Positions 48,019-60,451 of a stretch of DNA of 64,000 nucleotides are shown here, in pieces. The notes below the pieces were generated by a model. That model ran no database searches and had not been told where the DNA came from. It worked only from the letters and a program-made list of their open reading frames with translations. The position numbers and the translations under genes are program-made. Location of the stretch: contig NZ_ATXB01000001.1 in assembly GCF_000421465.1 (NCBI RefSeq), forward strand, positions 2,511,001 through 2,575,000. Reading direction: 5' to 3'. Positions within the stretch are counted from its first letter, which is position 1. Each line of letters begins with the position of its first letter. This DNA comes from Methylohalobius crimeensis 10Ki. GTDB lineage: Bacteria > Pseudomonadota > Gammaproteobacteria > Methylococcales > Methylothermaceae.

Positions 48019-48056
48019 GGCGGGCGGGCACGGCAAGGTGCCCGCCCGTGGTTTTT
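48019..48056 (+). terminator. Hairpin between pstS and pstC (attenuator-like)
   Basis: Perfect 11-bp stem (CGGGCGGGCAC and its complement at 48021-48031/48039-48049) with a 7-base loop and GGTTTTTGG after it. The T tract overlaps the upstream edge of pstC, so it most likely acts as a partial terminator within the operon. Confidence 0.7.
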
Positions 48057-48072
48057 GGAAACTCAAATCATC

Positions 48073-49449
48073 ATGCAGCCCGATACATTAATTCTGATTC
48101 TCTTAGGCTTAAGCGCTTGCGCCTATTATATCGGTATCAGACGCGCGCTTGCGGTCAGCGGCGGCCACCCCCGCAAGCTACACTCCCTACCCCGTTATTA
48201 CGGCTATTTCGCCGTGCTGTGGTGCGCGTTGCCGGCACTTCTCATTCTGATCTTATGGCTCGCCCTGGACGATAAAGTCATCACCCAACTGGTGATCGCC
48301 GCCCTTCCGGAAGAAGTCCGCGAGCTACCCGAAGAGCGGCTAAACCTGTTTTTCAATCAAGTGCGTAACGCGCTTGCCGGCGTGATTCCCCCGCGAGATC
48401 CCACCGTTCAAGCCGCAGCCGAACATTACCGCAACCTACAAGCCATCAGCGGCGGGTGTCTGACGGCATTGACCCTAGTCGCCGCCATCGCGGGGGCGAT
48501 TTGGGCCAGGAACCGAATCCGGCCGGATCTATGGGCCCGCAATCAGGTGGAAAAAATCCTCCGATTCTTTCTCATTTTAAGCTCCGTCCTGGCGATTCTC
48601 ACCACCATCGGCATTGTCTTGTCGGTCCTGTTCGAATCGCTGCGCTTCTTCAAGCAGGTTCCGCTCCCCGATTTTCTATTCGGGCTTCACTGGAGTCCCC
48701 AGATCGCCATTCGTCCCGGCCAAGTGGGTTCTTCCGGCGCTTTCGGTTTCATTCCCCTGCTCGCCGGCACCCTTCTGATCTCCGCCATCGCCATGCTGGT
48801 GGCGGTTCCCTTGGGACTACTGGCCGCCATCTACCTGGCCGAATTCGCGCATCGCAAAGTACGCGCGGCGACCAAACCCCTGCTGGAGGTCCTGGCCGGC
48901 GTGCCCACGGTGGTTTACGGTTTTTTCGCCGCCCTCGTGGTCGCCCCTTTCCTGCACGGCTTGGGAGAGACCGTGGCATTGGAGATTTCATTCGAAAGCG
49001 CCCTGGGCGCCGGATTGGTCATGGGCATCATGATCATTCCGTTCGTTTCCTCCCTGTCCGACGACGTGATCCACGCGGTTCCGCAGAATTTGCGCGACGG
49101 CGCCTACGCCCTGGGGGCGACCCGCGCCGAAGCCATCACCCAAGTGGTCATTCCAGCCGCCCTGCCGGGCATCGTGGGGGGGGTCCTGCTGGCGGTATCG
49201 CGCGCCATCGGCGAAACCATGATCGTGGTCATGGCTGCGGGACTCAGCGCCAATCTGACCCTCAACCCCCTGGAGTCGGTCACCACCATCACCGTACAAA
49301 TCGTGGGCCTATTGGTCGGCGATCAGGAATTCGACTCGCCCAAAACCCTGGCCGCATTCGCCCTCGGCCTGGTGCTTTTCCTGATCACCCTGAGCCTTAA
49401 CGTTCTGGCGCTCCACGTGGTTCGCAAATATCGGGAAGAATATGAATAA
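48073..49449 (+). CDS. pstC: Phosphate ABC transporter permease PstC
   Basis: Membrane subunit of the Pst importer, 458 residues, longer than E. coli PstC (319). The extra N-terminal part has additional membrane helices and a periplasmic region (ALPEEVRELPEERLNLFFNQ). The permease core shows SSGAFGFIPLLAGTLLISAI, the EAA-like loop ALGATRAEAITQVVIPAALP and IGETMIVVMAAGLSANLTLN. The ATG at 48073 is used; a TTG at 48055 in the same frame lies in the hairpin tail. The stop overlaps pstA by eight bases. Confidence 0.92.
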   Translation: MQPDTLILILLGLSACAYYIGIRRALAVSGGHPRKLHSLPRYYGYFAVLWCALPALLILILWLALDDKVITQLVIAALPEEVRELPEERLNLFFNQVRNALAGVIPPRDPTVQAAAEHYRNLQAISGGCLTALTLVAAIAGAIWARNRIRPDLWARNQVEKILRFFLILSSVLAILTTIGIVLSVLFESLRFFKQVPLPDFLFGLHWSPQIAIRPGQVGSSGAFGFIPLLAGTLLISAIAMLVAVPLGLLAAIYLAEFAHRKVRAATKPLLEVLAGVPTVVYGFFAALVVAPFLHGLGETVALEISFESALGAGLVMGIMIIPFVSSLSDDVIHAVPQNLRDGAYALGATRAEAITQVVIPAALPGIVGGVLLAVSRAIGETMIVVMAAGLSANLTLNPLESVTTITVQIVGLLVGDQEFDSPKTLAAFALGLVLFLITLSLNVLALHVVRKYREEYE

Positions 49450-50737
49450 TCAGCCATCCTCCTCCCCCGCCGACCGCCTCGCCCGTACCCTGGGACGGCG
49501 CCGCGCCCGGGAAACCCGTCTGAAAATCTACGGCATCCTGGCGGTGGCCACCGGTCTGGTGTTGCTGACGGTTCTTTTGTCCAGCATCCTCCTTTTGGGC
49601 TACCGCGCCTTCCAGCAAACCTATATCGCACTGGATATTCATTTCGATCCTCAAGTCATCGCGCCCGATGGACGCTTGGACCTGGATTCCCTGCGCGGCG
49701 CGGACTATAGCGCCCTGATCAGACGCGCCCTGCAAGACAAGTTCCCGGAGGTAACCGGCCGACGATCCAAAAGATCGCTTTATCGATTGTTAAGCGTCGG
49801 CGCACCCAATCAACTGCGCAAGATGGTATTGGCCGATTCACACCTCATCGGCACCACGCGGACGGTCTGGCTCATCGCTCACAGCGATGTGGACATGTAC
49901 ATGAAGGGTTATTTCGAGCAGAACGGGCCATCCCAACAAGGTCGCCTAAAGGATGCGCAAACCGGTTGGATCGAACAATTGGCGGCCGAGGACCGTTTGG
50001 AGAAACGCTTCAACTGGGTTTTCTTTACCTCGGGGGATTCTCGGGAGCCGGAGTTGGCCGGCATTCTGGGAGCCCTGATGGGCTCGATCTATGCGATCGG
50101 CCTGACCCTGGCGCTGTCCTTTCCTCTGGGGGTTGCCGCCGCCGTCTATCTGGAAGAATTCGCCCCCAAGAAAAATTTTTGGGTCGATCTGATCGAGGTC
50201 AACATCAACAACCTGGCGGCGGTCCCTTCGATCGTCTTCGGCCTTCTGGGTCTGGCGGTCTACTTGAACTTCTTCGGCCTCCCCCGCTCGACACCGTTGG
50301 TGGGCGGCTTGGTCCTGACCCTGATGACCCTGCCCACCATCATTATCGCCAGCCGGGCCGCTTTGAAAGCGGTTCCGCCTTGGATTCGCGAGGCCGCGCT
50401 GGGGGTCGGCGCTTCCAAAATGCAAATGGTCACCGACCACGTATTGCCCCTCGCCTTGCCGGGAATGCTCACCGGCGCCATCATCGGCATCGCCCAAGCC
50501 CTGGGGGAAACCGCGCCGCTGCTGATGATCGGCATGGTGGCCTTTATCGTGGATATTCCCCAGGGGCTCACCGATCCGGCCACCGCCCTACCGGTGCAGA
50601 TTTATCTTTGGGCCGACAGCGCCGAGCGGGGATTCGTGGAACGCGCCGCGGCCGCCATTCTCGTGCTGCTCTTGTTCATGTTGATCATGAACGCTCTGGC
50701 CATTATTCTCAGGCGGCGTTTTGAACGCCGCTGGTAA
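49442..50737 (+). CDS. pstA: Phosphate ABC transporter permease PstA
   Basis: Second membrane subunit, 431 residues (E. coli 296). After the first helix (LAVATGLVLLTVLLSSILLL) there is a large extra-membrane region of about 150 residues (AYSALIRRALQDKFPE-like, DMYMKGYFEQNGPSQQGRLK) before the permease core: SIYAIGLTLALSFPLGVAAA, YLEEFAPKKNFWVDLIEVNI, AALGVGASKMQMVTDHVLPL, ALGETAPLLMIGMVAF. Long PstC and PstA forms of this type occur together in several gammaproteobacteria. It precedes pstB by 25 bases. Confidence 0.92.
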   Translation: MNNQPSSSPADRLARTLGRRRARETRLKIYGILAVATGLVLLTVLLSSILLLGYRAFQQTYIALDIHFDPQVIAPDGRLDLDSLRGADYSALIRRALQDKFPEVTGRRSKRSLYRLLSVGAPNQLRKMVLADSHLIGTTRTVWLIAHSDVDMYMKGYFEQNGPSQQGRLKDAQTGWIEQLAAEDRLEKRFNWVFFTSGDSREPELAGILGALMGSIYAIGLTLALSFPLGVAAAVYLEEFAPKKNFWVDLIEVNINNLAAVPSIVFGLLGLAVYLNFFGLPRSTPLVGGLVLTLMTLPTIIIASRAALKAVPPWIREAALGVGASKMQMVTDHVLPLALPGMLTGAIIGIAQALGETAPLLMIGMVAFIVDIPQGLTDPATALPVQIYLWADSAERGFVERAAAAILVLLLFMLIMNALAIILRRRFERRW

Positions 50738-50762
50738 CCAGCAATCAATCTGAACAGCGACT

Positions 50763-51656
50763 ATGCCAAACATCAGCGATACGCCTCTGGCCACTCAATA
50801 TCCTTCGGCCACTTCGGCTCGACAAACCGTACCGGAAGATACTTCCCGCAGCCATCTGGAGGAATTGCCCAACGTCACTCTCGGCGACTACACCGTCTCC
50901 GACCCCCGGATGACCTGCCGCAACGTCAGCGTGTTCTACGGCGAAAAACAAGCCGTTCACGACATCGCCCTGGACATCGGCCGCCAGGAAGTGATCGCCT
51001 TGATCGGCCCTTCCGGCTGCGGCAAATCCACCTTTCTCCGTTGCCTCAACCGAATGAACGACACCATCGAAGGGTGCCGGGTGAAAGGAGAAATCAAGCT
51101 GGAAGACCACGACATTTACCGCAGCAACCTGGATCCGGTGATTCTGCGCGCGCGGGTGGGGATGGTATTCCAAAAACCCAACCCCTTCCCCAAATCCATT
51201 TACGATAACGTCGCCTACGGTCCGCGCATCCACGGCCTGGCACGCAACCGCACCGAACTCGATGAAATCGTGGAAACCTCCCTCAGGAAAGCCGGCCTGT
51301 GGAAAGAGGTCAAGGACCGTCTCGACCAAGCCGGGACCGGTCTTTCCGGGGGCCAGCAACAGCGCCTGTGCATCGCTCGCGCCATCGCTGTGGGTCCCGA
51401 GGTGCTGCTCATGGACGAACCCTGCTCGGCCCTCGATCCCATCGCCACCGCCACCATCGAGCAGCTCATCGACGAACTGCGCACCCAGTACTCCATCGTC
51501 ATCGTCACCCATGCCATGCAGCAAGCCGCCCGGGTGTCCCACCGCACCGCTTATTTCCATCTGGGCCGGTTGGTCGAAATCGGCCCGACCGCCAGTATTT
51601 TCACCAACCCGAAACATCCCCTGACCGAAGATTACATCACCGGGCGCTTTGGTTAA
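50763..51656 (+). CDS. pstB: Phosphate ABC transporter ATP-binding protein
   Basis: Powers phosphate import. 297 residues. Walker [11 protein letters not shown]-loop [20 protein letters not shown], signature [16 protein letters not shown], Walker [17 protein letters not shown] and the H-loop [13 protein letters not shown]; the [12 protein letters not shown] block is specific to PstB. The first 45 residues are a non-conserved extension, so a later start is possible, but no clear ribosome site decides. No phoU follows, unlike the usual pst operon. A GCGCTTTGGTT palindrome covers the stop codon without a T tract. Confidence 0.95.
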
Positions 51657-51821: not shown

Positions 51822-53717
51822 ATGCTGAATAAGTTTAACTTCGACGAGTTGAAGGCGACCGACCGTCTTCCTTCCCCTTCGGGAATTGCCTTGAAAGTGC
51901 TGGAATTGACAAGCCGGGAAGACACCACCTTGGACGACCTGACGCGCCTCATCCAAGCCGATCCAGCACTCAGCAGCCGCCTGCTCAAATTCGCCAACTC
52001 CTCCTTGATTGCTCACCGAAGACCCATCGTCGCGATCCAGGAGGCGGGGGTCCGAATCGGCATGACCGGTGTGCGCAATCTGGTATTGGGGTTATCATTG
52101 GTGGGTAAATACCATAGCGGCGCTTGCCTGAGTTTCAATTACGATCGCTTCTGGGCCGGCTCTCTGGCGATGGCGGTGGCATTGAGCGCTTTGGCCGTCC
52201 GCCGCCGCATCATCGCGCCGGAAGAAACCTTTACCCTAGGCCTCTTGGCCGAGATCGGGCAACTGGCTCTCGCAGCCGCCTGGCCGGAGGAATACGCTCG
52301 ATGCCTTGAACAGGCTGGAGGCAAGGAATTTGACTCGGAAAAATCCTTTCCCCTCCTGGCGCTGGAACGTAAACATTTCGCCATCGACCAAGAAAAGCTC
52401 ACCTTGCTGCTCTTGGCGGATTGGGGGCTGCCCAAAATCTTCCGCGATGCCTTAGCCCTCTCCAAGGACCTTGCTTCCGCCCCCGACCCCCGGATCCAAA
52501 CCCTGGCTCGCCAAATCGCCTTCGCCCGGTCCATCGCCGCCTGGTGCCTAACAGAGACACGCGAAGATCACCTGCCGAACCTCGAACGGCACGCGAGCTG
52601 TCATGAATTGGATCCGGACAGCCTGACGGGTTTTCTGGAAGAGATCGAAGCCGCTTGGCATTCGTGGGGAAAAGTAATCGAAGTGCGCACCGACCTGCCG
52701 CCGGAATTACCCTCCCAGGAGCAAGTAGGGGCGACCGGCCGGTCGCCCCTACTCCCATCCATGCCGGGATTGGATATTGCGCTGGTGGATAACGATCCCG
52801 TGCTCTTGGCTGAATTGTCCAAGGAACTCCAAAAAGCCGACCATCGGGTACGTATCTACCGAGACGCCCGGGAGGCGTTCAAAATGATTCTCCAAAATCC
52901 GCCCCAATTGGTGGTTGCCGACTGGTCCATGCAACCTGTGGACGGTCTCACCCTATGCCGTAATTTGCGTCGGTCTTCCCGGGGGCCGCATCTTTATCTC
53001 ATCTTGCTCACCGCCCATGAAAACGAGGACGATTTGGTGCGGGCCTTCGAGGCGGGCATCGACGATTATGTGACCAAACCCATCAATATCAAAGTACTCT
53101 TGGCGCGCATTAGCGCCGGCCAACGGATCGCCATGTTGCAGTCCGAGCTTGCCAAAGAACGCACCGAGCTGGAACACAAAGCCAAAGAACTGGCCCTCGC
53201 CAACCGCAAATTGGAACAGCTCGCCAATACCGATCTATTGACCGGCCTGCCGAATCGCCGTTACGCTCAGCGGCGGTTGCAGCAAGAATTGACCACCGCC
53301 CGTCGCCATGCCCAACCGCTGGGGATCATGGTCCTGGATCTCGATCACTTCAAGGACATCAACGACACGCTCGGCCATACCGCCGGCGACGAAGTGCTCC
53401 AACATGCCGCCCGTATCATGCAAAAGGCGTTGCGCGCGTCCGATGTATTATGCCGCTGGGGCGGGGAGGAGTTTCTCGCCATCGTTCCCAACACCGATCT
53501 TGCCGATACCCGGAAATTGGCCGAACGCATCCGCGGTCAACTCGCCGAGCATCAACCCGCGGAATTGACGTTGAAACGCCCGGTCACCGTCAGTATCGGC
53601 GTGGGGACTTTCCCCCCCGCCGCTGATCTGGAACAACTGCTCCGCCTAGCCGACGACGCTCTTTACCACGCCAAGGGAAAAGGGCGCAATCGGGTGGAAT
53701 CCGCCCGATACTATTAA
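51822..53717 (+). CDS. HDOD-REC-GGDEF signalling protein (probable diguanylate cyclase)
   Basis: 631 residues, cytoplasmic. Residues 1-290: HDOD domain (LPSPSGIALKVLELTSREDT, DPALSSRLLKFANSSL). Residues about 315-440: receiver domain with phospho-acceptor D367 (QLVVADWSMQPVDGL) and DDYVTKP. After a helical linker (LAKERTELEHKAKELALANR) comes a GGDEF domain with active-site GGEEF near 546, an RASD inhibitory site five residues before it and TDLLTGLPNRR at its start. It should make c-di-GMP in response to a phosphorelay. Between HDOD and REC the protein carries VGATGRSPLL, encoded by a 28-bp perfect palindrome that looks inserted. Confidence 0.9.
   Translation: MLNKFNFDELKATDRLPSPSGIALKVLELTSREDTTLDDLTRLIQADPALSSRLLKFANSSLIAHRRPIVAIQEAGVRIGMTGVRNLVLGLSLVGKYHSGACLSFNYDRFWAGSLAMAVALSALAVRRRIIAPEETFTLGLLAEIGQLALAAAWPEEYARCLEQAGGKEFDSEKSFPLLALERKHFAIDQEKLTLLLLADWGLPKIFRDALALSKDLASAPDPRIQTLARQIAFARSIAAWCLTETREDHLPNLERHASCHELDPDSLTGFLEEIEAAWHSWGKVIEVRTDLPPELPSQEQVGATGRSPLLPSMPGLDIALVDNDPVLLAELSKELQKADHRVRIYRDAREAFKMILQNPPQLVVADWSMQPVDGLTLCRNLRRSSRGPHLYLILLTAHENEDDLVRAFEAGIDDYVTKPINIKVLLARISAGQRIAMLQSELAKERTELEHKAKELALANRKLEQLANTDLLTGLPNRRYAQRRLQQELTTARRHAQPLGIMVLDLDHFKDINDTLGHTAGDEVLQHAARIMQKALRASDVLCRWGGEEFLAIVPNTDLADTRKLAERIRGQLAEHQPAELTLKRPVTVSIGVGTFPPAADLEQLLRLADDALYHAKGKGRNRVESARYY
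52725..52752. repeat. 28-bp perfect palindrome inside the GGDEF gene
   Basis: GTAGGGGCGACCGG followed by its exact reverse complement. In frame it reads VGATGRSPLL. An almost identical copy (one mismatch at the edge) is at 59974-60001 in another gene. Confidence 0.95.
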
Positions 53718-53819
53718 ACTGCTTTATTGCAAATCTGTTGGCGAAAATCGCCCGATCAGGTATTTTTCTGACTCAAGTTACCGTACCACCAAGCAGCACA
53801 CATCATCAGGAACTTCATC

Positions 53820-54464
53820 ATGCGTCATTTAATATTTCTCATTGGCCTGGCTCTCTCCTTGGGCGCCTGTTCAAGCGTCTATTACGGAGCGATGGAGGAA
53901 GTCGGCTTTCACAAACGGGATATTCTCGTTCACCGAATCAATAAAGCCCGGGAGGAACAGTCCGAAGCCAAGGAACAATTCCAATCGGCGCTGGAACGGT
54001 TTACCGCGCTGACCCAATTCGACGGCGGAGACCTCCAGGACAAGTATGAAGAACTCAATGACGCCTATGAAGGGAGCGCAGCCAAAGCCGAGGCGGTCGG
54101 CAAGCGCATTGCCGACATCGAAAACGTGGCCGAGGCACTGTTCGAAGAATGGGAAGCGGAGCTTTCCCAATACAGCAATCCCTCTTTGCGTCGCCAAAGC
54201 GCGCGACAGCTGCAAGAAACCCAACGCCGCTATCAACGCCTGATCACCGCGATGAAACGCGCCGAGGCGAAAATCGATCCCGTGCTCAGCGTCTTTCAAG
54301 ATCAGGTCTTGTTCCTCAAACACAACCTCAACGCCCGCGCCATCGCTTCCCTGCAGACCGAACTGAAGGCCATCGAAGACGACGTGGCGGCCCTGATTCG
54401 GGAAATGGAGCGCTCCATTCAGGAGGCGGACGCGTTCATTCAAGCGATGCAGGAAAACACCTGA
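53820..54464 (+). CDS. DUF2959 coiled-coil lipoprotein
   Basis: 214 residues. Lipoprotein signal MRHLIFLIGLALSLGAC with lipobox LGAC. The mature part starts SSVYYGAMEEVGFHKRDILV, the DUF2959 hallmark, and is almost all helical with predicted coiled coils (REEQSEAKEQFQSALERFTA, QLQETQRRYQRLITAMKRAE, DDVAALIREMERSIQEADAF). Function unknown; probably a periplasmic rod attached to a membrane. It is followed after 63 bases by a VWA protein and two membrane coiled-coil proteins on the same strand. Confidence 0.88.
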   Translation: MRHLIFLIGLALSLGACSSVYYGAMEEVGFHKRDILVHRINKAREEQSEAKEQFQSALERFTALTQFDGGDLQDKYEELNDAYEGSAAKAEAVGKRIADIENVAEALFEEWEAELSQYSNPSLRRQSARQLQETQRRYQRLITAMKRAEAKIDPVLSVFQDQVLFLKHNLNARAIASLQTELKAIEDDVAALIREMERSIQEADAFIQAMQENT

Positions 54465-54527
54465 TGTCCGGAAGGGATGACGATTTGGTCTATCCTTCTA
54501 GCATAATCTCGGAAGGATGGAGCATTC

Positions 54528-56213
54528 GTGCGAATTTTGTGTCTGGGTCTGTTTGTATTGACCGTTGCCGCCCATGCCGGGGAAAGCGATCTACGCGTTC
54601 TCATCGACGTATCCGGGAGCATGCGCCAAAACGATCCTCACGGCCTGCGTATTCCGGCGCTCAAATTGCTATTGGAATTGCTGCCGCCCGCCACCCGCGC
54701 AGGCGTTTGGCTGTTTTCCGAGACCCCGGAAAATTTGATTTCCCTGGCACCGGTGGATCGACAATGGAAGAATGCGGCCGGCGAGGCCGCTCAACGCATT
54801 CATTCCCGCGGCCGCTACACCGACATTGAAAAGGCCCTCCAAACCGTCATCGCCGACTGGGAAGCCCCCGGCGAGGATCGCCATATCATCCTCTTGACCG
54901 ACGGCATGTTGGACGTTGCACCCGATCCGGCGCTCGATTCCGCCTCCCGAAATCGAATCGAGCGACAGCTCATCCCCCGCCTGCAGGCGCTCGGCGCCCG
55001 GATCTACACCATCGCCCTCTCGGATCAGGCCGATCATCACCTGATGCGGCAATTGGCCATCGCCACCGACGGCTGGAACGAGACCGCCCGCTCGGCCGAA
55101 CAATTGCAGCGCGCCTTTCTCAAAATCGTGCAGAAAGCCACCCCCCGCGAAGGCCTGCCTTTACGAGACAACCGCTTCACCGTCGACGCCAACGTGCGCG
55201 AATTTTCCCTCCTGGTTTTTCGGCGACCGGAAAGCCCGGCCACCGAATTGATCCGGCCCGACGCCACCCGTTGGAGCGCCGCCGACCATCCGGACACCGT
55301 GCATTGGCACCCAGAAGACGGCTTCGACTTGATCACCGTCGACCAGCCCATGCCCGGCCCCTGGCAACTGGCCGCCCGACTGGACCCGGACAATCAGGTC
55401 ATGATCGTCACCGACCTGCAACTGAAAACCGCTGCCTTGCCCAATCATCTGGCGGCGGGTGAAACGCTCGCCGTCCGCGCCGAGTTGACCGAGCACGACC
55501 GGCGCATCACGCGAGAACACTTCCTGGGCTTGGTCAAGTTTCAGCTTCTGCAAAAAGGGCCCGAGGAAGTGCAAAAAACCCTGATACCGGCCCCGGAAGA
55601 AGCCGGAGTGTTCAGCGCCGCCACGAAGCTGGAGAAACCCGGTATCTACACTTTTGAGGTGACGGTGGACGGCAAGACTTTTCAGCGCGTCCGGAAGCAA
55701 CGGATCGAGGTGCTCGCGCTTCCCGTCGCCACCGAGGTCATCCCTCCCCGAGCCGCGGGGGAACCCTTGATCGTCCGTCTAACCCCCGACCCCGAACGCA
55801 TCGATCCGGCCACTTTCGAGGCCGCGGCCTTGATCGCTTCCGCCTCCGACCCGCCCCGTGAGATGCCGTTCAGCTCCGGAAACGAAGCCTTCTGGGAACT
55901 TCCCCTATCCGCACCGGAAGCCAAGCGCCGGCTGACCGTCAATTTCCACATCCAGGCCCGGGATCGCGAAGGCAATCCGCTTCAAGTCCACCTCCGGCCG
56001 ATCGAGCTGGAACCGAGCCAGTTTCAAACCCATTCGACCGAGGCGGATAAAGCACCGCAACCAACGGCGAAACCCATCGATTGGCTCTGGTCCGGGTTGA
56101 TCGCGGCCGGCGTCAATCTGATTTTGGGTGGGGCCGGATTTTTCGGCTGGCGGAAGCTGCGCCAACACGCCCGGCAGCGGCAAGAACAGTTACTGAATCG
56201 TCTCACCACTTGA
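54528..56213 (+). CDS. VWA-domain protein, secreted with C-terminal membrane anchor
   Basis: 561 residues. Signal peptide MRILCLGLFVLTVAAHA, then a von Willebrand A domain with a complete metal site: DVSGS at 27-31, the threonine in GRYTDIEKAL and the aspartate in ILLTDGM. Residues about 210-500 look like Ig-like or beta-sandwich repeats (EEAGVFSAATKLEKPGIYTF). A terminal helix (LWSGLIAAGVNLILGGAGFF) and basic tail (WRKLRQHARQRQEQ) anchor it with the C-terminus in the cytoplasm. The GTG start has GGAG five bases before it. Next gene begins within three bases of the stop. Confidence 0.82.
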   Translation: MRILCLGLFVLTVAAHAGESDLRVLIDVSGSMRQNDPHGLRIPALKLLLELLPPATRAGVWLFSETPENLISLAPVDRQWKNAAGEAAQRIHSRGRYTDIEKALQTVIADWEAPGEDRHIILLTDGMLDVAPDPALDSASRNRIERQLIPRLQALGARIYTIALSDQADHHLMRQLAIATDGWNETARSAEQLQRAFLKIVQKATPREGLPLRDNRFTVDANVREFSLLVFRRPESPATELIRPDATRWSAADHPDTVHWHPEDGFDLITVDQPMPGPWQLAARLDPDNQVMIVTDLQLKTAALPNHLAAGETLAVRAELTEHDRRITREHFLGLVKFQLLQKGPEEVQKTLIPAPEEAGVFSAATKLEKPGIYTFEVTVDGKTFQRVRKQRIEVLALPVATEVIPPRAAGEPLIVRLTPDPERIDPATFEAAALIASASDPPREMPFSSGNEAFWELPLSAPEAKRRLTVNFHIQARDREGNPLQVHLRPIELEPSQFQTHSTEADKAPQPTAKPIDWLWSGLIAAGVNLILGGAGFFGWRKLRQHARQRQEQLLNRLTT

Positions 56214-56215
56214 CC

Positions 56216-56884
56216 ATGATCCAACTCGACCCCGTCATTGCGCTACTGATCGCCGAAATCCTCGCGGGACTGGCCTTGGCCGCTCTGCTTGGGATTGGCT
56301 TCTTATTTCGCCGCAAACACCGCGAACGGCACGCCGTAGGGCATTTGATCAAACGCTTGAAACAAGCCACCCACGGCCATTCCCACCGGATCGGCTCGAT
56401 TCTGGAGAAAATCCACGCCCTGCCGGAAGACAAACGCGAGGCCCTGATCCAGGAAACGATCCAGCGGGAGCAGGCCTTGTACAAGCAGATCCTTCAATCC
56501 TTCCTGCAGCGCGACGTGGCGGGGCTGGGACAACTGGGATCGCAACTGCAGGCTTATACCGAACCCTACCATCGGCTCTTGCAGGAAATGCCCAGCGGGA
56601 AGCACCCGTCTCTCAGCCATGAACTGGCGGAAGCGCGCGATGAGCTCGCCCGATCCCGGGCGGAAAACGAACAGCTCGCGGATCAACTCCAGGTGGCGAT
56701 GGAAACCATCAGTCACCTGTCCTCGGAATATTCCCGCCTGTTCGCCTCGGAGCGAACCGCCGAAGAACTCAAAGTCAGCAGCGACCGGGTACTCAACACC
56801 TTGCGCGCCAACGCCGATCGTCTGACGGCGCCGGGCGAAGCCCCTCAAGCCGAGGAAACTTCCATCGTCCGGAGCGCCTCATGA
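56216..56884 (+). CDS. Membrane-anchored coiled-coil protein, partner of the VWA gene
   Basis: 222 residues. One N-terminal membrane helix (IALLIAEILAGLALAALLGIGF) is followed by RRKHRERH and a long cytoplasmic helical region (HRIGSILEKIHALPEDKREA, ELAEARDELARSRAENEQLA, VAMETISHLSSEYSRLFASE). No known domain recognised. The start is the ATG at 56216, since upstream codons lie in the VWA gene. Its stop overlaps the next start (ATGA at 56881-56884). Confidence 0.75.
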   Translation: MIQLDPVIALLIAEILAGLALAALLGIGFLFRRKHRERHAVGHLIKRLKQATHGHSHRIGSILEKIHALPEDKREALIQETIQREQALYKQILQSFLQRDVAGLGQLGSQLQAYTEPYHRLLQEMPSGKHPSLSHELAEARDELARSRAENEQLADQLQVAMETISHLSSEYSRLFASERTAEELKVSSDRVLNTLRANADRLTAPGEAPQAEETSIVRSAS

Positions 56885-57432
56885 ATCCCCCCATCCTCTG
56901 GCTGCTCCTGGGCGAATTAGCGCTCCTCCTGAGCGGCACCGGCCTGGCTTGGATCGTTCTCGGTTGGCGCCGCCAACGCCAACGCAGCCGGGCGATCACC
57001 GATTTCATCGATGGGACCGAAAAAAATCACCGCGAACGCGCCGAAATTTACCGCCAGTGGCTCCAGCAGCATTTAAAACTCAACGATGAACAAATCGACC
57101 ACACCACCGATCAGTGGCTGGAGGCGGAAAAACTATTCTGGCGCGCAGCCCTCTCCTGGCAGCTCCAACCGAGTCCCCTGACCCTAGCCGAGATGCCCGG
57201 CCACCTCCGGCGGCTCATCGATGACCGCCTGGAAGCCCTGGCCCAAGCGGTGGAAAAATCTTCCGCGCCGCAGGAAAATCAGGCGGACTTTCCGGATACC
57301 GCCACGAATGAATTATCGATCCTGGAGGAATTCACCGACAACGACGAAGCCAACCGGGAAACCGCCGGCGACGATGTCACCTCCGCCGGGGAGGCTTCGG
57401 CCGAGACCACAGGAAACCCACCCCCAAAATGA
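56881..57432 (+). CDS. Membrane-anchored helical protein, last gene of the VWA operon
   Basis: 183 residues. An N-terminal membrane helix (ILWLLLGELALLLSGTGLAW) with a basic stop-transfer (GWRRQRQRSR), then a helical domain (TEKNHRERAEIYRQWLQQHL, QWLEAEKLFWRAALSWQLQP) and an acidic, probably disordered tail (TNELSILEEFTDNDEANRET). Same topology as the preceding gene, so the two may pair in the membrane. Its 3' end overlaps the convergent GtrA-YfhO gene by 56 bases. Not recognised as a named family. Confidence 0.72.
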   Translation: MNPPILWLLLGELALLLSGTGLAWIVLGWRRQRQRSRAITDFIDGTEKNHRERAEIYRQWLQQHLKLNDEQIDHTTDQWLEAEKLFWRAALSWQLQPSPLTLAEMPGHLRRLIDDRLEALAQAVEKSSAPQENQADFPDTATNELSILEEFTDNDEANRETAGDDVTSAGEASAETTGNPPPK

Positions 57433-60400
57433 GCCAAGCACTTAGAAATCCGGCCACGATCCAAGCGTAAAAACGGGGATGATAGGTAAACCGGATCTCG
57501 GCGTGTCCGCGAGGCAGCGCCACTTGCTGGAACAAACCCTCGGTTTCCTCCACCGGAACCGGCTTGCCGTTCACTTCCGCGCGCCAGCCGGGATAAAAGG
57601 TTTCCAACCGCACCAACCGACTGGGACGGTCGCATTCCGCCATGACCGCATTCCGACCATCCGCCCGCAAGCGGCATCCTTCGGCGCTGAAGTAATCGCG
57701 AAATTCATCCAGAGCATAAATGTTCATGACCGGATCGCGGTGGACAAGATACACACCGGAACGGTTTTTTTCCCGATACCAAAATTTCAAACGCAGTCCT
57801 CTGCCGTTCAAATTCTGATGGCTTGCGTGAAGATCTTGAAGTGAATCCGGAACTTGCGGCCACAACCACAGCGCTACCGGCTGGGTCGCAGTTAAATAGC
57901 GAAACTCGATCTCAATCGGCACCTCGGGGATAAGCTGGACAGGTGGGGACAAATTAAATCTCAAAAAAGCATTATCCCTGGCGTTTTTCACATCGCTTAC
58001 GGCGGTGCGGCAATAATCCAGCTGGCACAGCTTGGCTTCGAGCCGCCCATCCGCCTTTCCATGATAAGTGCCGATAAACACGCCAAAAATCCGCAACTCA
58101 CCCGGCGGTATATTAGGCAAGCGAACTCGAAGCACTTCTCCTCCATACACCGCCAAAGCCTCATTGTCTCGAACTTGAATGGGGACTTCGTATTGATCTA
58201 GATCGAGACTTTCATACGGATAAGTAATAATGTGCGATACGCCTGCCTTCGAATAAGCACCGATCCGATTGCGCAGAACCTGAAGCGGGTCAGGGTCCGA
58301 AGGGTTGGGATGAAAATGGCCGTCGAAAATAATAGCGCTGCTATAAGGATCGAAATGCGTCCTGCGATAGTCGGCGAGATTTTTCGGGATCGGCAAGTCG
58401 TTATAATTCAGCTGGGCGATCTCAAAAACCGAACCATAATTGGGCGCCAAAGGACCGGTCGTATAAAACCGTTGCAAGCCGAGCTTTTGTTCGAGATATG
58501 CCACTCCCTCCAGATGAAGATTTCCTCTTTTAGGAGAGGAGAAGACCGGAATCAAAAACAAAATCGTCGATTCAAACAGGACTACCGCTGCCACCAGGGG
58601 CGCCGAATCGTGACGCTTGAAATACCCCAACCAAGCCGTGCAAGCAAACACCAAGGCGCCCAAAGCCAACGAATCGAGCGTCCACCAGATCAAGGACGAA
58701 GCGGTATTTAATTGCCAAAGAAAATCCCACGTCAATCCAAACGCGAACGCCACTAGCGCCATCACGCTCAAAAGCGGAATCCAGGATAATTTCATATGCC
58801 CATTTCGCCGGACCAAATCATCCAGTGCGAAGGCGGCAAGAACGACTATTCCCATGGATAAGGAAGGCCAAACATAGCGGAAAAATGCCGCAAGCTCCAC
58901 CATCGGCAATAGGTTGAGCAATTGAGTAATCCCCGGCATACCCAAAGCCTTGGCCAGACCGAGCAGGATCCAAGCGAGAATACCGATCTTCAACCATCGT
59001 TCCCGCTTCCCGAGCAAAGCAAACGCCGCCAGAAAAACCGGTCCAAAGCCCAAATAACCGCCGATGCTTCCCCACCAAGTCGCGCTTCCCGACCATCCAC
59101 CATAGCCGATGGGGCCGAAGAAATAAGGAAAAAACGAAGCCATCAATCCATGTGCTGGCAACGATTGATTGCCTAGAGCCGAGGCTTGATGCCCTCCCAC
59201 ATCGGCCATGGTCAGAAACTCGAAAAACGGCACGACCACGGGCAAGCTCAAAAGAATTCCCGCCGTGCCTCCCCCCGTGATCCAACCCAAGAATCGCCAT
59301 CGCTGGCTTCCCTGAAGTTGACCCAAACGCACCAGCGTCCAAATCAGGACCAGCAATCCATTGATATAAGCCACTTCGGGAAAACCGGCATAGAGAGATA
59401 ACGACAAGGCCAGAGGAAGGCAAAGCCAGCCGATCCCATGCCCTTCTCGAACGAGTCGGACCGTTTCCTCCACCCCCAATAAAAACCAGGGTAAAAAACA
59501 GATTGGATTGATCACTGCATTGGCCAGCCAGGCATAGGTACCGTTCATTTCGAACAACAGTCCGCCGGTTACCGCCGCCAACATGCCCAACCCCAATCTA
59601 CGCAACAAAAAGAAGGTTCCCCATCCCGCCATTACTTGGAGGCAAAGATGAAACCAAAGTTGTCCATGGGGGAGCGCGTAGAAAAGTATGAACGGCAGAA
59701 ACAACGCGGCGCTTTGCATTTCCGCCGCCAATAGGGTACCGGTTCCCTCGTAGGGGTTCCACCAGGGTATTTTCCCCGCTAGCCAATCATCCGCCGCCCT
59801 TTGCCCCAATGCATCCGACGTAAAAGCAATGTTGTTATCGATAGTGGGTAAACCGGGCAGTATTCGCCCTCCCACATCGAGAGCCAAGTCACCAAAGCTA
59901 ACGAAGGGATCGGAGATAAACCATCCAGTCCAGAGAGGTGCCTTAAGAAGAAAAGGGTAAACCAACAACCACAGCAGGGGCGACCGGCCGGTCGCCCCTA
60001 CGGAAATTGAGGCGATGGTAAGAAAGGGAAAACGCCTCTGAAACGCGGGAACAGAAGCGTTTGACCGATGCCCCCCACTAAAGACAAAATAGCGCGACAA
60101 TCCGAAATTGAAGAACATCCCCGCCACCGAACCCACCGCCACGGCGAGAACGGGGTAACGGTGAAACAGGGCCGACTGGGTCACCAACAAGACATAACTG
60201 CCGTTATTGGCCAACCATCCGATCCCGTTGGCGCTCACGTAATAAGCCCATTCCCGCCGCAAGGAACGCTCACTGGGGCCGAAAGTAAAATGCCGATTCA
60301 ACCACCAAGTAAACGTCGCCGCCAGTGGGAATCCGACCGCCTGGGCCCATAACGGGCCGATATGAGGAGACAACCAGGCCACCCCCCCGCCGTTGACCCC

Positions 60401-60451
60401 AAACCCCAATACCCCGACCCACGCAAAGCGGAGGAATTGCCGGACGATCAT
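57377..60451 (-). CDS. GtrA-YfhO fusion membrane protein
   Basis: 1024 residues. Residues 1-130 are a GtrA-like four-helix domain (QFLRFAWVGVLGFGVNGGGV, WWLNRHFTFG, GMFFNFGLSRYFVFSG), a family involved in moving lipid-linked sugars. Residues about 160-1024 are a YfhO-type protein: a dozen membrane helices with loops such as IPWWNPYEGTGTLLAAEMQS, then a large extracytoplasmic domain and a last helix near the C-terminus. YfhO proteins act with GT2 enzymes in lipid-linked glycosylation. The joint contains VGATGRSPLL, encoded by a palindromic repeat. The ATG overlaps the GT2 stop (ATGA). Confidence 0.85.
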   Translation of the reverse strand: MIVRQFLRFAWVGVLGFGVNGGGVAWLSPHIGPLWAQAVGFPLAATFTWWLNRHFTFGPSERSLRREWAYYVSANGIGWLANNGSYVLLVTQSALFHRYPVLAVAVGSVAGMFFNFGLSRYFVFSGGHRSNASVPAFQRRFPFLTIASISVGATGRSPLLWLLVYPFLLKAPLWTGWFISDPFVSFGDLALDVGGRILPGLPTIDNNIAFTSDALGQRAADDWLAGKIPWWNPYEGTGTLLAAEMQSAALFLPFILFYALPHGQLWFHLCLQVMAGWGTFFLLRRLGLGMLAAVTGGLLFEMNGTYAWLANAVINPICFLPWFLLGVEETVRLVREGHGIGWLCLPLALSLSLYAGFPEVAYINGLLVLIWTLVRLGQLQGSQRWRFLGWITGGGTAGILLSLPVVVPFFEFLTMADVGGHQASALGNQSLPAHGLMASFFPYFFGPIGYGGWSGSATWWGSIGGYLGFGPVFLAAFALLGKRERWLKIGILAWILLGLAKALGMPGITQLLNLLPMVELAAFFRYVWPSLSMGIVVLAAFALDDLVRRNGHMKLSWIPLLSVMALVAFAFGLTWDFLWQLNTASSLIWWTLDSLALGALVFACTAWLGYFKRHDSAPLVAAVVLFESTILFLIPVFSSPKRGNLHLEGVAYLEQKLGLQRFYTTGPLAPNYGSVFEIAQLNYNDLPIPKNLADYRRTHFDPYSSAIIFDGHFHPNPSDPDPLQVLRNRIGAYSKAGVSHIITYPYESLDLDQYEVPIQVRDNEALAVYGGEVLRVRLPNIPPGELRIFGVFIGTYHGKADGRLEAKLCQLDYCRTAVSDVKNARDNAFLRFNLSPPVQLIPEVPIEIEFRYLTATQPVALWLWPQVPDSLQDLHASHQNLNGRGLRLKFWYREKNRSGVYLVHRDPVMNIYALDEFRDYFSAEGCRLRADGRNAVMAECDRPSRLVRLETFYPGWRAEVNGKPVPVEETEGLFQQVALPRGHAEIRFTYHPRFYAWIVAGFLSAWLILGVGFLWSRPKPPRRR
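59974..60001. repeat. 28-bp palindrome in the GtrA-YfhO linker
   Basis: Second copy of the GTAGGGGCGACCGG palindrome, 27 of 28 bases identical to 52725-52752. On the minus strand it encodes VGATGRSPLL at residues about 151-160. Confidence 0.95.

What the first reader, a model, noticed from the sequence alone, without database searches (positions are those of the whole stretch)
52725..60001. The same 28-bp palindrome is translated as VGATGRSPLL in two unrelated proteins
Copies at 52725-52752 (HDOD-REC-GGDEF gene, plus strand) and 59974-60001 (GtrA-YfhO gene, minus strand) differ at one edge base. Because the element is a perfect palindrome, it reads identically in either orientation, and both insertions fell in the same phase and at domain boundaries. 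A short mobile or template-switching repeat that is tolerated as a universal in-frame linker is unusual and would be a source of new inter-domain peptides.
Basis: seen in the sequence. Interest (0 to 1): 0.8.

Follow-up and report, generated by a model that had tools for sequence, protein, structure and literature searches.

The report
Mobile palindrome inserted inside protein genes
The shared ten-residue peptide comes from copies of a known kind of tiny bacterial mobile DNA hairpin (a REP element) whose likely transposase gene lies elsewhere in the same genome; such hairpins inside genes have been described before.

Summary
GTAGGGGCGACCGGCCGGTCGCCCCTAC lies at 52725-52752, and a copy with one changed edge base at 59974-60001. 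Both read VGATGRSPLL, in an HDOD-REC-GGDEF and a GtrA-YfhO protein. Relatives lack the peptide: 19 of 19 fetched for the first, 2 of 2 full-length ones for the second.

The genome holds 24 distinct copies at up to 2 mismatches; 12 lie inside Pfam-supported reading frames (RecB, RecD, HisS, DhaL and others). About 27 kb past the window sits the likely cognate transposase: a REP-associated HUH tyrosine transposase with a copy on each side and one in frame in its own HUH-Tyr loop.

This matches the 'double foot' REPs of TnpAREP subclass 2.4 (Quentin 2018), where in-frame copies inside the transposase gene are described. REPs inside recBCD and pseudouridine synthase genes are in Di Nocera 2013.

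The shared phase needs no special mechanism: on either strand one phase meets TAG, one gives VGATGRSPL, one RGDRPVAP, and the last is used in DhaL and the transposase. Net length change varies between sites, which fits selection of tolerated insertions.

Verdict: a new member of a known kind. The repeated hits on recB and recD are the part worth following.

The parts
52725..52752 (.). REP copy 1, perfect 28-bp palindrome GTAGGGGCGACCGGCCGGTCGCCCCTAC, read VGATGRSPL(L)
51822..53717 (+). HDOD-REC-GGDEF gene carrying copy 1 at residues 302-311, between HDOD and REC
   Evidence: Pfam HDOD 16-214, Response_reg 319-430, GGDEF 468-624; position
52326..52358 (+). Probable decayed REP copy (EFDSEKSFPLL) in the same gene, at the site where the paralogue has AGATGRSPLL and relatives have 7-9 residues fewer
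   Evidence: the decay is inference
59974..60001 (.). REP copy 2, GCAG...CTAC, one edge base different, read VGATGRSPL(L) on the minus strand
57377..60451 (-). GtrA-YfhO membrane protein gene carrying copy 2 at residues 151-160, after the GtrA domain
   Evidence: Pfam GtrA_DPMS_TM 8-124, YfhO best stretch 954-995; position

Best explanation
The palindrome is a 'double foot' GTAG-type REP element, a miniature non-autonomous mobile hairpin. It was most likely spread in this genome by the REP-associated HUH tyrosine transposase (RAYT/TnpAREP, subclass 2.4-like) encoded at G000:C1:2601906-2602469, minus strand, about 27 kb past the end of the window. Proposed mechanism, taken from work on other TnpAREP and not shown here: the enzyme acts on the single-stranded hairpin with its GTAG foot and strand-transfers copies, often to nearby sites. 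Copies that land in genes mostly destroy them; those that leave the frame open and sit in tolerant loops or linkers survive. In frame the palindrome can only read VGATGRSPL or RGDRPVAP, because the third phase meets TAG on either strand, so two unrelated proteins have a fair chance of the same peptide. Shown here: the repeat family, copies in genes, absence in relatives, copies on both sides of and inside the RAYT gene, the association in the RAYT subfamily, clustering, no target-site duplication. Inferred: that this RAYT moved the copies, that spread is local, and that the peptides are neutral.
For: 24 distinct copies; unit is exactly the 28-bp palindrome, with no flank consensus (17 own and 81 foreign copies) and no target-site duplication of 3, 4, 5, 6, 8 or 9 bases, as expected for an HUH enzyme. 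RAYT ORF with PNHIH and WQRNYYEHIIRD, palindromes on both sides and one in frame in the loop; Y1_Tnp 34 bits over cut-off 23. Homologues: an arm GTAGGGGC or GCCCCTAC within 180 nt after HUH in 22 of 32 readable ORFs (35 loci tried) against 0 of 20 (25 tried) other Y1 transposases; perfect palindromes nearby in 9 of 35 against 0 of 25; inner sequence differs between lineages and matches between internal and outer copies in L236 and L241. 8 of the 80 listed foreign palindrome loci also hold a RAYT of this family. Relatives lack the peptides; exact palindrome absent in 9 of 9 other genomes of the genus, present in 5 of 151 of the order, own included. Clustering: 10 neighbour pairs within 5 kb, shuffled mean 0.77, 0 of 20000 shuffles as high.
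Against: No empty site at DNA level: the closest relatives are about 53-63% identical in protein. At one RecB site the REP is not a net insertion (-2 residues against four relatives). The RAYT scores 73 bits against the NCBIfam REP_Tyr_transpos cut-off of 80 and was missed by the PF01797 genome search. Of the 5 genomes of the order with the exact palindrome, G135 has only a short weak hit to this RAYT, and G098 only a partial one. Many genomes have a related RAYT but not this exact palindrome, G001 of the same genus among them (48%). 10 of 32 homologue ORFs have no arm in the loop, and some of the 22 are near-duplicates of each other. The RAYT's own internal copy may have altered it; activity is untested.
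Confidence: 0.9

Rival explanations
1. The copies inside genes are kept because they are useful: as hairpins in DNA or RNA that tune expression, or as peptides that alter the proteins, notably RecB and RecD.
For: Two internal copies each in recB and recD, plus a further recD copy near the N-terminus; Di Nocera 2013 found recBCD and other repair genes carrying REPs in other species and doubts that it is fortuitous.
Against: Targets are otherwise unrelated. The palindrome is not specially conserved between the two HDOD paralogues: 72 of 620 nine-codon windows have 2 or fewer differences, as the REP has. One copy seems to have decayed in the window gene. Copies cluster, so recB-recD may reflect one or two local events.
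Confidence: 0.05
2. The repeats spread by template switching or recombination between palindromes, without a transposase.
For: Clustering of copies; a perfect palindrome is a plausible substrate; no target-site duplication.
Against: Copies on both sides of and inside a RAYT gene, the 22 of 32 against 0 of 20 association, and sites in unrelated genes with no shared flank sequence.
Confidence: 0.04
3. The peptide is an old protein motif shared by the two proteins by homology or convergence, and the palindrome is incidental.
For: Only that both proteins have it at a domain boundary.
Against: 19 of 19 fetched relatives of the HDOD protein and 2 of 2 full-length relatives of the GtrA-YfhO protein lack it; the same DNA lies outside genes and is read in another phase in DhaL and the RAYT.
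Confidence: 0.01

Closest known systems
TnpAREP subclass 2.4 (RAYT group 4) with 'double foot' REPs, Quentin et al. 2018, PMC6006769 (section 13 read whole, other passages read)
   Same: REP with GTAG at one end and CTAC at the other; copies flanking the transposase gene; in-frame copies inside the transposase gene between HuH and Y; NH[IFV]H and WQ motifs; scattered over phyla.
   Different: Here about half of the copies in one genome lie inside supported genes other than or including the transposase. The Y motif here is YIAVNP where the paper's table gives YIxNNP.
GTAG-tagged REPs inside genes, Di Nocera et al. 2013, PMC3733652 (sections 15 and 16 whole, section 17 part 1 of 2)
   Same: GTAG REPs translated inside unrelated proteins, including recBCD and pseudouridine synthases; proposed tolerance in loops and linkers; RAYT-REP units called REPtrons.
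   Different: Their GTAG families have an unpaired tag at one end; here the tag pairs with CTAC and the element is a full palindrome.
Rickettsia palindromic elements (RPE), as cited in PMC3733652
   Same: Palindromes kept in frame inside many unrelated protein genes.
   Different: RPE-4 and RPE-6 are placed there among CGTC repeats, which have no associated transposase; here the repeat is of GTAG type with a RAYT. The original RPE papers are recalled, not read.

Membership tests
[quoted passage not shown]
   15 of 15 palindromes from the pattern search start GTAG and end CTAC, but the pattern required that; of the 24 copies some have changed edges such as GCAG
Double-foot GTAG REP of TnpAREP subclass 2.4 | Copies flank a tnpAREP gene | tested here: met
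   Palindromes at C1:2601879-2601906 and 2602495-2602522 on either side of the RAYT ORF
Double-foot GTAG REP of TnpAREP subclass 2.4 | In-frame REP inside the tnpAREP gene between HuH and Y | tested here: met
   Copy at C1:2602147-2602174 in frame in the loop; an arm there in 22 of 32 homologue ORFs
TnpAREP/RAYT protein | HUH motif and catalytic tyrosine in a Y1 transposase domain | tested here: met
   PNHIH and WQRNYYEHIIRD in P0001; Y1_Tnp 34 bits, cut-off 23. NCBIfam REP_Tyr_transpos 73 bits, below its cut-off of 80
TnpAREP/RAYT protein | Subclass 2.4 signature NH[IFV]H, WQ, YIxNNP | tested here: inconclusive
   NHIH and WQ fit; the Y motif is YIAVNP, so the N before NP is V (table). No tree with reference subclass members was made
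TnpAREP/RAYT protein | Cleaves and strand-transfers its cognate single-stranded REP | not testable with these tools
   Needs the purified protein
Di Nocera GTAG REP families | GTAG tag unpaired at one end | tested here: not met
   GTAG pairs with CTAC at the other end
MITE of a DDE transposon | Target-site duplication | tested here: not met
   0 of 17 own and 0 of 81 foreign copies with a duplication of 3, 4, 5, 6, 8 or 9 bases

The most novel reading that the evidence does not exclude
The insertions of this REP into recB and recD (two internal copies each, out of 12 internal copies in the genome, with a probable third in recD) are not accidental: altering RecBCD favours the spread or persistence of the REP and its transposase, a case of a REPtron feeding back on host recombination.
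Probability: 0.06. Interest if true: 0.7.

Novelty: new member of a known kind. Interest (0 to 1): 0.27.

Why it matters
It shows how one mobile hairpin can put the same peptide into unrelated proteins without any special linker mechanism, and it offers annotators a rule: VGATGRSPL or RGDRPVAP in a protein suggests a REP insertion. It adds a genome in which half of the copies found lie inside supported genes, among them the only hisS above the family cut-off and both recB and recD. The recurrence of REPs in recBCD genes, proposed in 2013, is seen again and can be tested.

Tried and rejected
Special conservation of the palindrome between the two HDOD paralogues: the core is identical and both edges changed in a paired way, which looked striking, but 72 of 620 nine-codon windows of the gene have 2 or fewer differences. 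Dropped.

Other Y1 transposases as the mover: the 7 PF01797 rows in the genome have no GTAGGGGCGACC arm in their loci, which hold 1.5 kb on each side, and several carry other inverted repeats. The likely transposase was not in that list; it came up in a Pfam scan of an ORF over one palindrome.

my script took wrong-strand ORFs for several of those transposases, so its tblastn is not used; one search repeated the search with the right protein and hit 8 of the 80 listed foreign loci (L063, L075, L081, L083, L098, L113, L124, L126).

Foreign copies inside genes: for 19 of the 80 foreign loci a spanning ORF was sent to Pfam, chosen mostly for length and a central copy; 9 of 19 gave a hit. By Pfam span L067, L074, L079 and L121 are internal; L053, L057, L060 are C-terminal tails; L107 and L109 have uncertain starts. 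The rest were looked at by ORF length only, apart from the RAYT ORFs.

Papers: 'GTAGGGGCGA' as a letter string gave 15 papers, by their titles unrelated (listing only); 'VGATGRSP' gave 0. Searches gave no further paper on a RAYT carrying its own REP beyond those cited (listings only).

A first attempt to align all HDOD relatives used too strict a motif and read 1 of 19; one search repeated it with blastp and read 19 of 19.

It had wrongly placed the GtrA-YfhO peptide at about residue 170-179 (it is 151-160) and gave +8 for a RecB site (it is +7 against three of four relatives); both are mended here. Confidence in the odds did not change.
Full report
Observation. The first is a perfect 28-bp palindrome; the second has GCAG in place of GTAG on one side. 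In the whole genome (3.51 Mb, 5 contigs; the window is C1:2511001-2575000) the 23-base core occurs at 24 distinct places with up to 2 mismatches, 16 of them exact, and the reversed control gives none (my count of its rows). The pattern GTAGGGGC-N-GCCCCTAC gives 15 palindromes, all of 28 bp. Flanks of 17 own and 81 foreign copies show no consensus and no target-site duplication of 3, 4, 5, 6, 8 or 9 bases, so the 28-bp palindrome is the unit.

Where the copies lie. I looked at ORFs over each copy and ran Pfam on those that might be genes and NCBIfam on seven proteins. Of 24 copies, 12 lie inside a reading frame with a Pfam hit: the HDOD-REC-GGDEF gene of the window (1), its paralogue (2), GtrA-YfhO (1), hisS (1), recD (2), recB (2), a ClpP-phage capsid fusion (1), dhaL (1) and the RAYT (1). 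One of the recD copies is near the N-terminus and counts as internal if the gene starts at the methionine at residue 11 of the ORF, which fits the alignment to the recD model. Three more are at gene ends or have uncertain starts: a third copy in the recD ORF still closer to the N-terminus, the C-terminal end of a pseudouridine synthase, and the N-terminus of a phage cement protein. For the other 9 no supported gene was found in frame; one of these (C2:380591) has a 110-residue ORF that was not sent to Pfam. The REP-bearing hisS is the only match above the family cut-off (1 of 5 matches), so that protein is probably functional; that is inference.

Phase. On either strand the palindrome has three phases: VGATGRSPL, a TAG stop, and RGDRPVAP. 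Two survivors taken at random would share a phase about half the time. Among internal copies here, counting the site shared by the two HDOD paralogues once, VGATGRSPL is used 9 times and RGDRPVAP twice (dhaL and RAYT). Adding five internal foreign copies (L067, L074, L079, L083 against L121) gives 13 to 3; a two-sided binomial figure worked by hand is about 0.02. This is a modest preference on a small, hand-picked set; it could come from what proteins tolerate.

Absence in relatives. In 19 of 19 fetched relatives of the HDOD-REC-GGDEF protein (41-61% identical; one, L170, aligned from residue 285 on) the peptide is missing, and none of the 19 loci holds the paired DNA core. In 2 of 2 full-length relatives of the GtrA-YfhO protein it is missing; the other six hits cover the GtrA part only. 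Net length differs by site: +10 residues in GtrA-YfhO; +9 against five of seven relatives and +7 against two at the second site of the HDOD paralogue; +7 against three of four relatives at one RecB site, the fourth having other sequence of nearly the same length; and -2 against all four at the other RecB site, where the REP seems to replace rather than add. As 28 is not a multiple of three, a bare insertion would shift the frame; varied net lengths fit small accompanying changes and selection. The exact palindrome, with any four bases in the middle, is absent from 9 of 9 other genomes of the genus and occurs in 5 of 151 genomes of the order, own included. Among named genomes it occurs in Chloroflexi, Planctomycetes, Deltaproteobacteria, Gemmatimonadota, Methylobacter and others (a capped list).

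Paralogue. The genome has a second HDOD-REC-GGDEF gene (C1:44034-45923, minus strand; 82% DNA identity) with the REP at the same site and another REP at a second linker, where the window gene has what looks like a decayed copy, EFDSEKSFPLL at 52326-52358. So insertions can be inherited and can decay.

The transposase. Three palindromes at C1:2601879-2602522 lie on either side of and inside an ORF on the minus strand (P0001) with an HUH motif (PNHIH) and a tyrosine region (WQRNYYEHIIRD). Pfam gives Y1_Tnp, 34 bits over a cut-off of 23; the one NCBIfam hit is REP_Tyr_transpos at 73 bits, below its cut-off of 80. Homologues show the same anatomy with other inner sequences: L236 has GAATGATTATTC or GAATAATTATTC palindromes in the loop and beyond both ends of the conserved core, and L241 has an AAAT type in the loop and upstream. 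Of 35 homologue loci 32 had a readable HUH ORF, and 22 of the 32 carry a GTAGGGGC or GCCCCTAC arm within 180 nt after the HUH motif; of 25 other Y1 loci 20 had such an ORF and 0 of 20 carry an arm. Some homologues are near-duplicates, so the 22 are not all independent. A strict test for perfect palindromes nearby gives 9 of 35 against 0 of 25. Against the link: among the 5 genomes of the order with the exact palindrome, G135 has only a short weak hit and G098 a partial one, and related RAYTs occur in genomes without this palindrome, such as G001 of the same genus (48%).

Clustering. Ten neighbour pairs lie within 5 kb against a shuffled mean of 0.77; none of 20,000 shuffles is as high. Local spread is my reading; duplication of short stretches is not excluded.

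What is known. Quentin et al. 2018 (PMC6006769; section 13 whole, other passages) describe, for TnpAREP subclass 2.4, double-foot REPs, REPs flanking the gene and in-frame REPs inside the gene between HuH and Y, in a range of phyla. Di Nocera et al. 2013 (PMC3733652; sections 15 and 16 whole, part 1 of 2 of section 17) describe GTAG REPs inside genes, among them recBCD and pseudouridine synthase genes, and tolerance in loops and linkers. Corneloup et al. 2021 (PMC8266576; abstract and outline) report that E. coli TnpAREP processes single-stranded REP in vitro. The present case fits these. In the searches I ran I did not find this sequence family or peptide named; supplements could not be opened.

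Host. Two genes match PF02461 well above its cut-off, so the host oxidises methane or ammonia; a methanotroph is my inference, and I could not name it.

Verdict. A known mechanism in an attractive example. The part worth following is the repeated hit on recB and recD, noted in print for other species and seen again here, although clustering means these may be few events.

Noticed in passing
G000:C1:44034-45923 (locus L196): Second HDOD-REC-GGDEF gene, 82% DNA identity to the window gene, with the REP at the same site (edges GCAG...CTGC) and a second REP at another linker.
   Followed up: yes
L041 (G000:C1:2491600-2498100): recB carries two REP copies and recD two or three, while hisS elsewhere carries one; matches the recBCD recurrence in Di Nocera 2013.
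   Followed up: partly
L032, L033, L034, L036 (other Y1 transposases of the genome): Each has its own inverted repeats of other sequence, such as GGGGTCAGA and GTAGGTTGGGGTGA types, so several REP or TIR systems coexist here.
   Followed up: no
L033:1127-1652: A 263-bp perfect tandem duplication at the start of a Y1 transposase gene.
   Followed up: no
L242 (G082:C104): The HUH-Tyr loop of a related RAYT holds many tandem GDRPDCCT repeats and then a run of N; it looks like an expanded REP half.
   Followed up: no
L040 (G000:C2:10200-22100): Four REP copies within about 9 kb around phage capsid and cement protein genes, one inside a ClpP-capsid fusion ORF, so the REP also sits in a prophage-like region.
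   Followed up: partly
window 48055-51656: Two permease-like ORFs and an ABC ATPase ORF directly before the HDOD gene look like a phosphate (pst) transport operon; named from recall, no family search was run on them.
   Followed up: no
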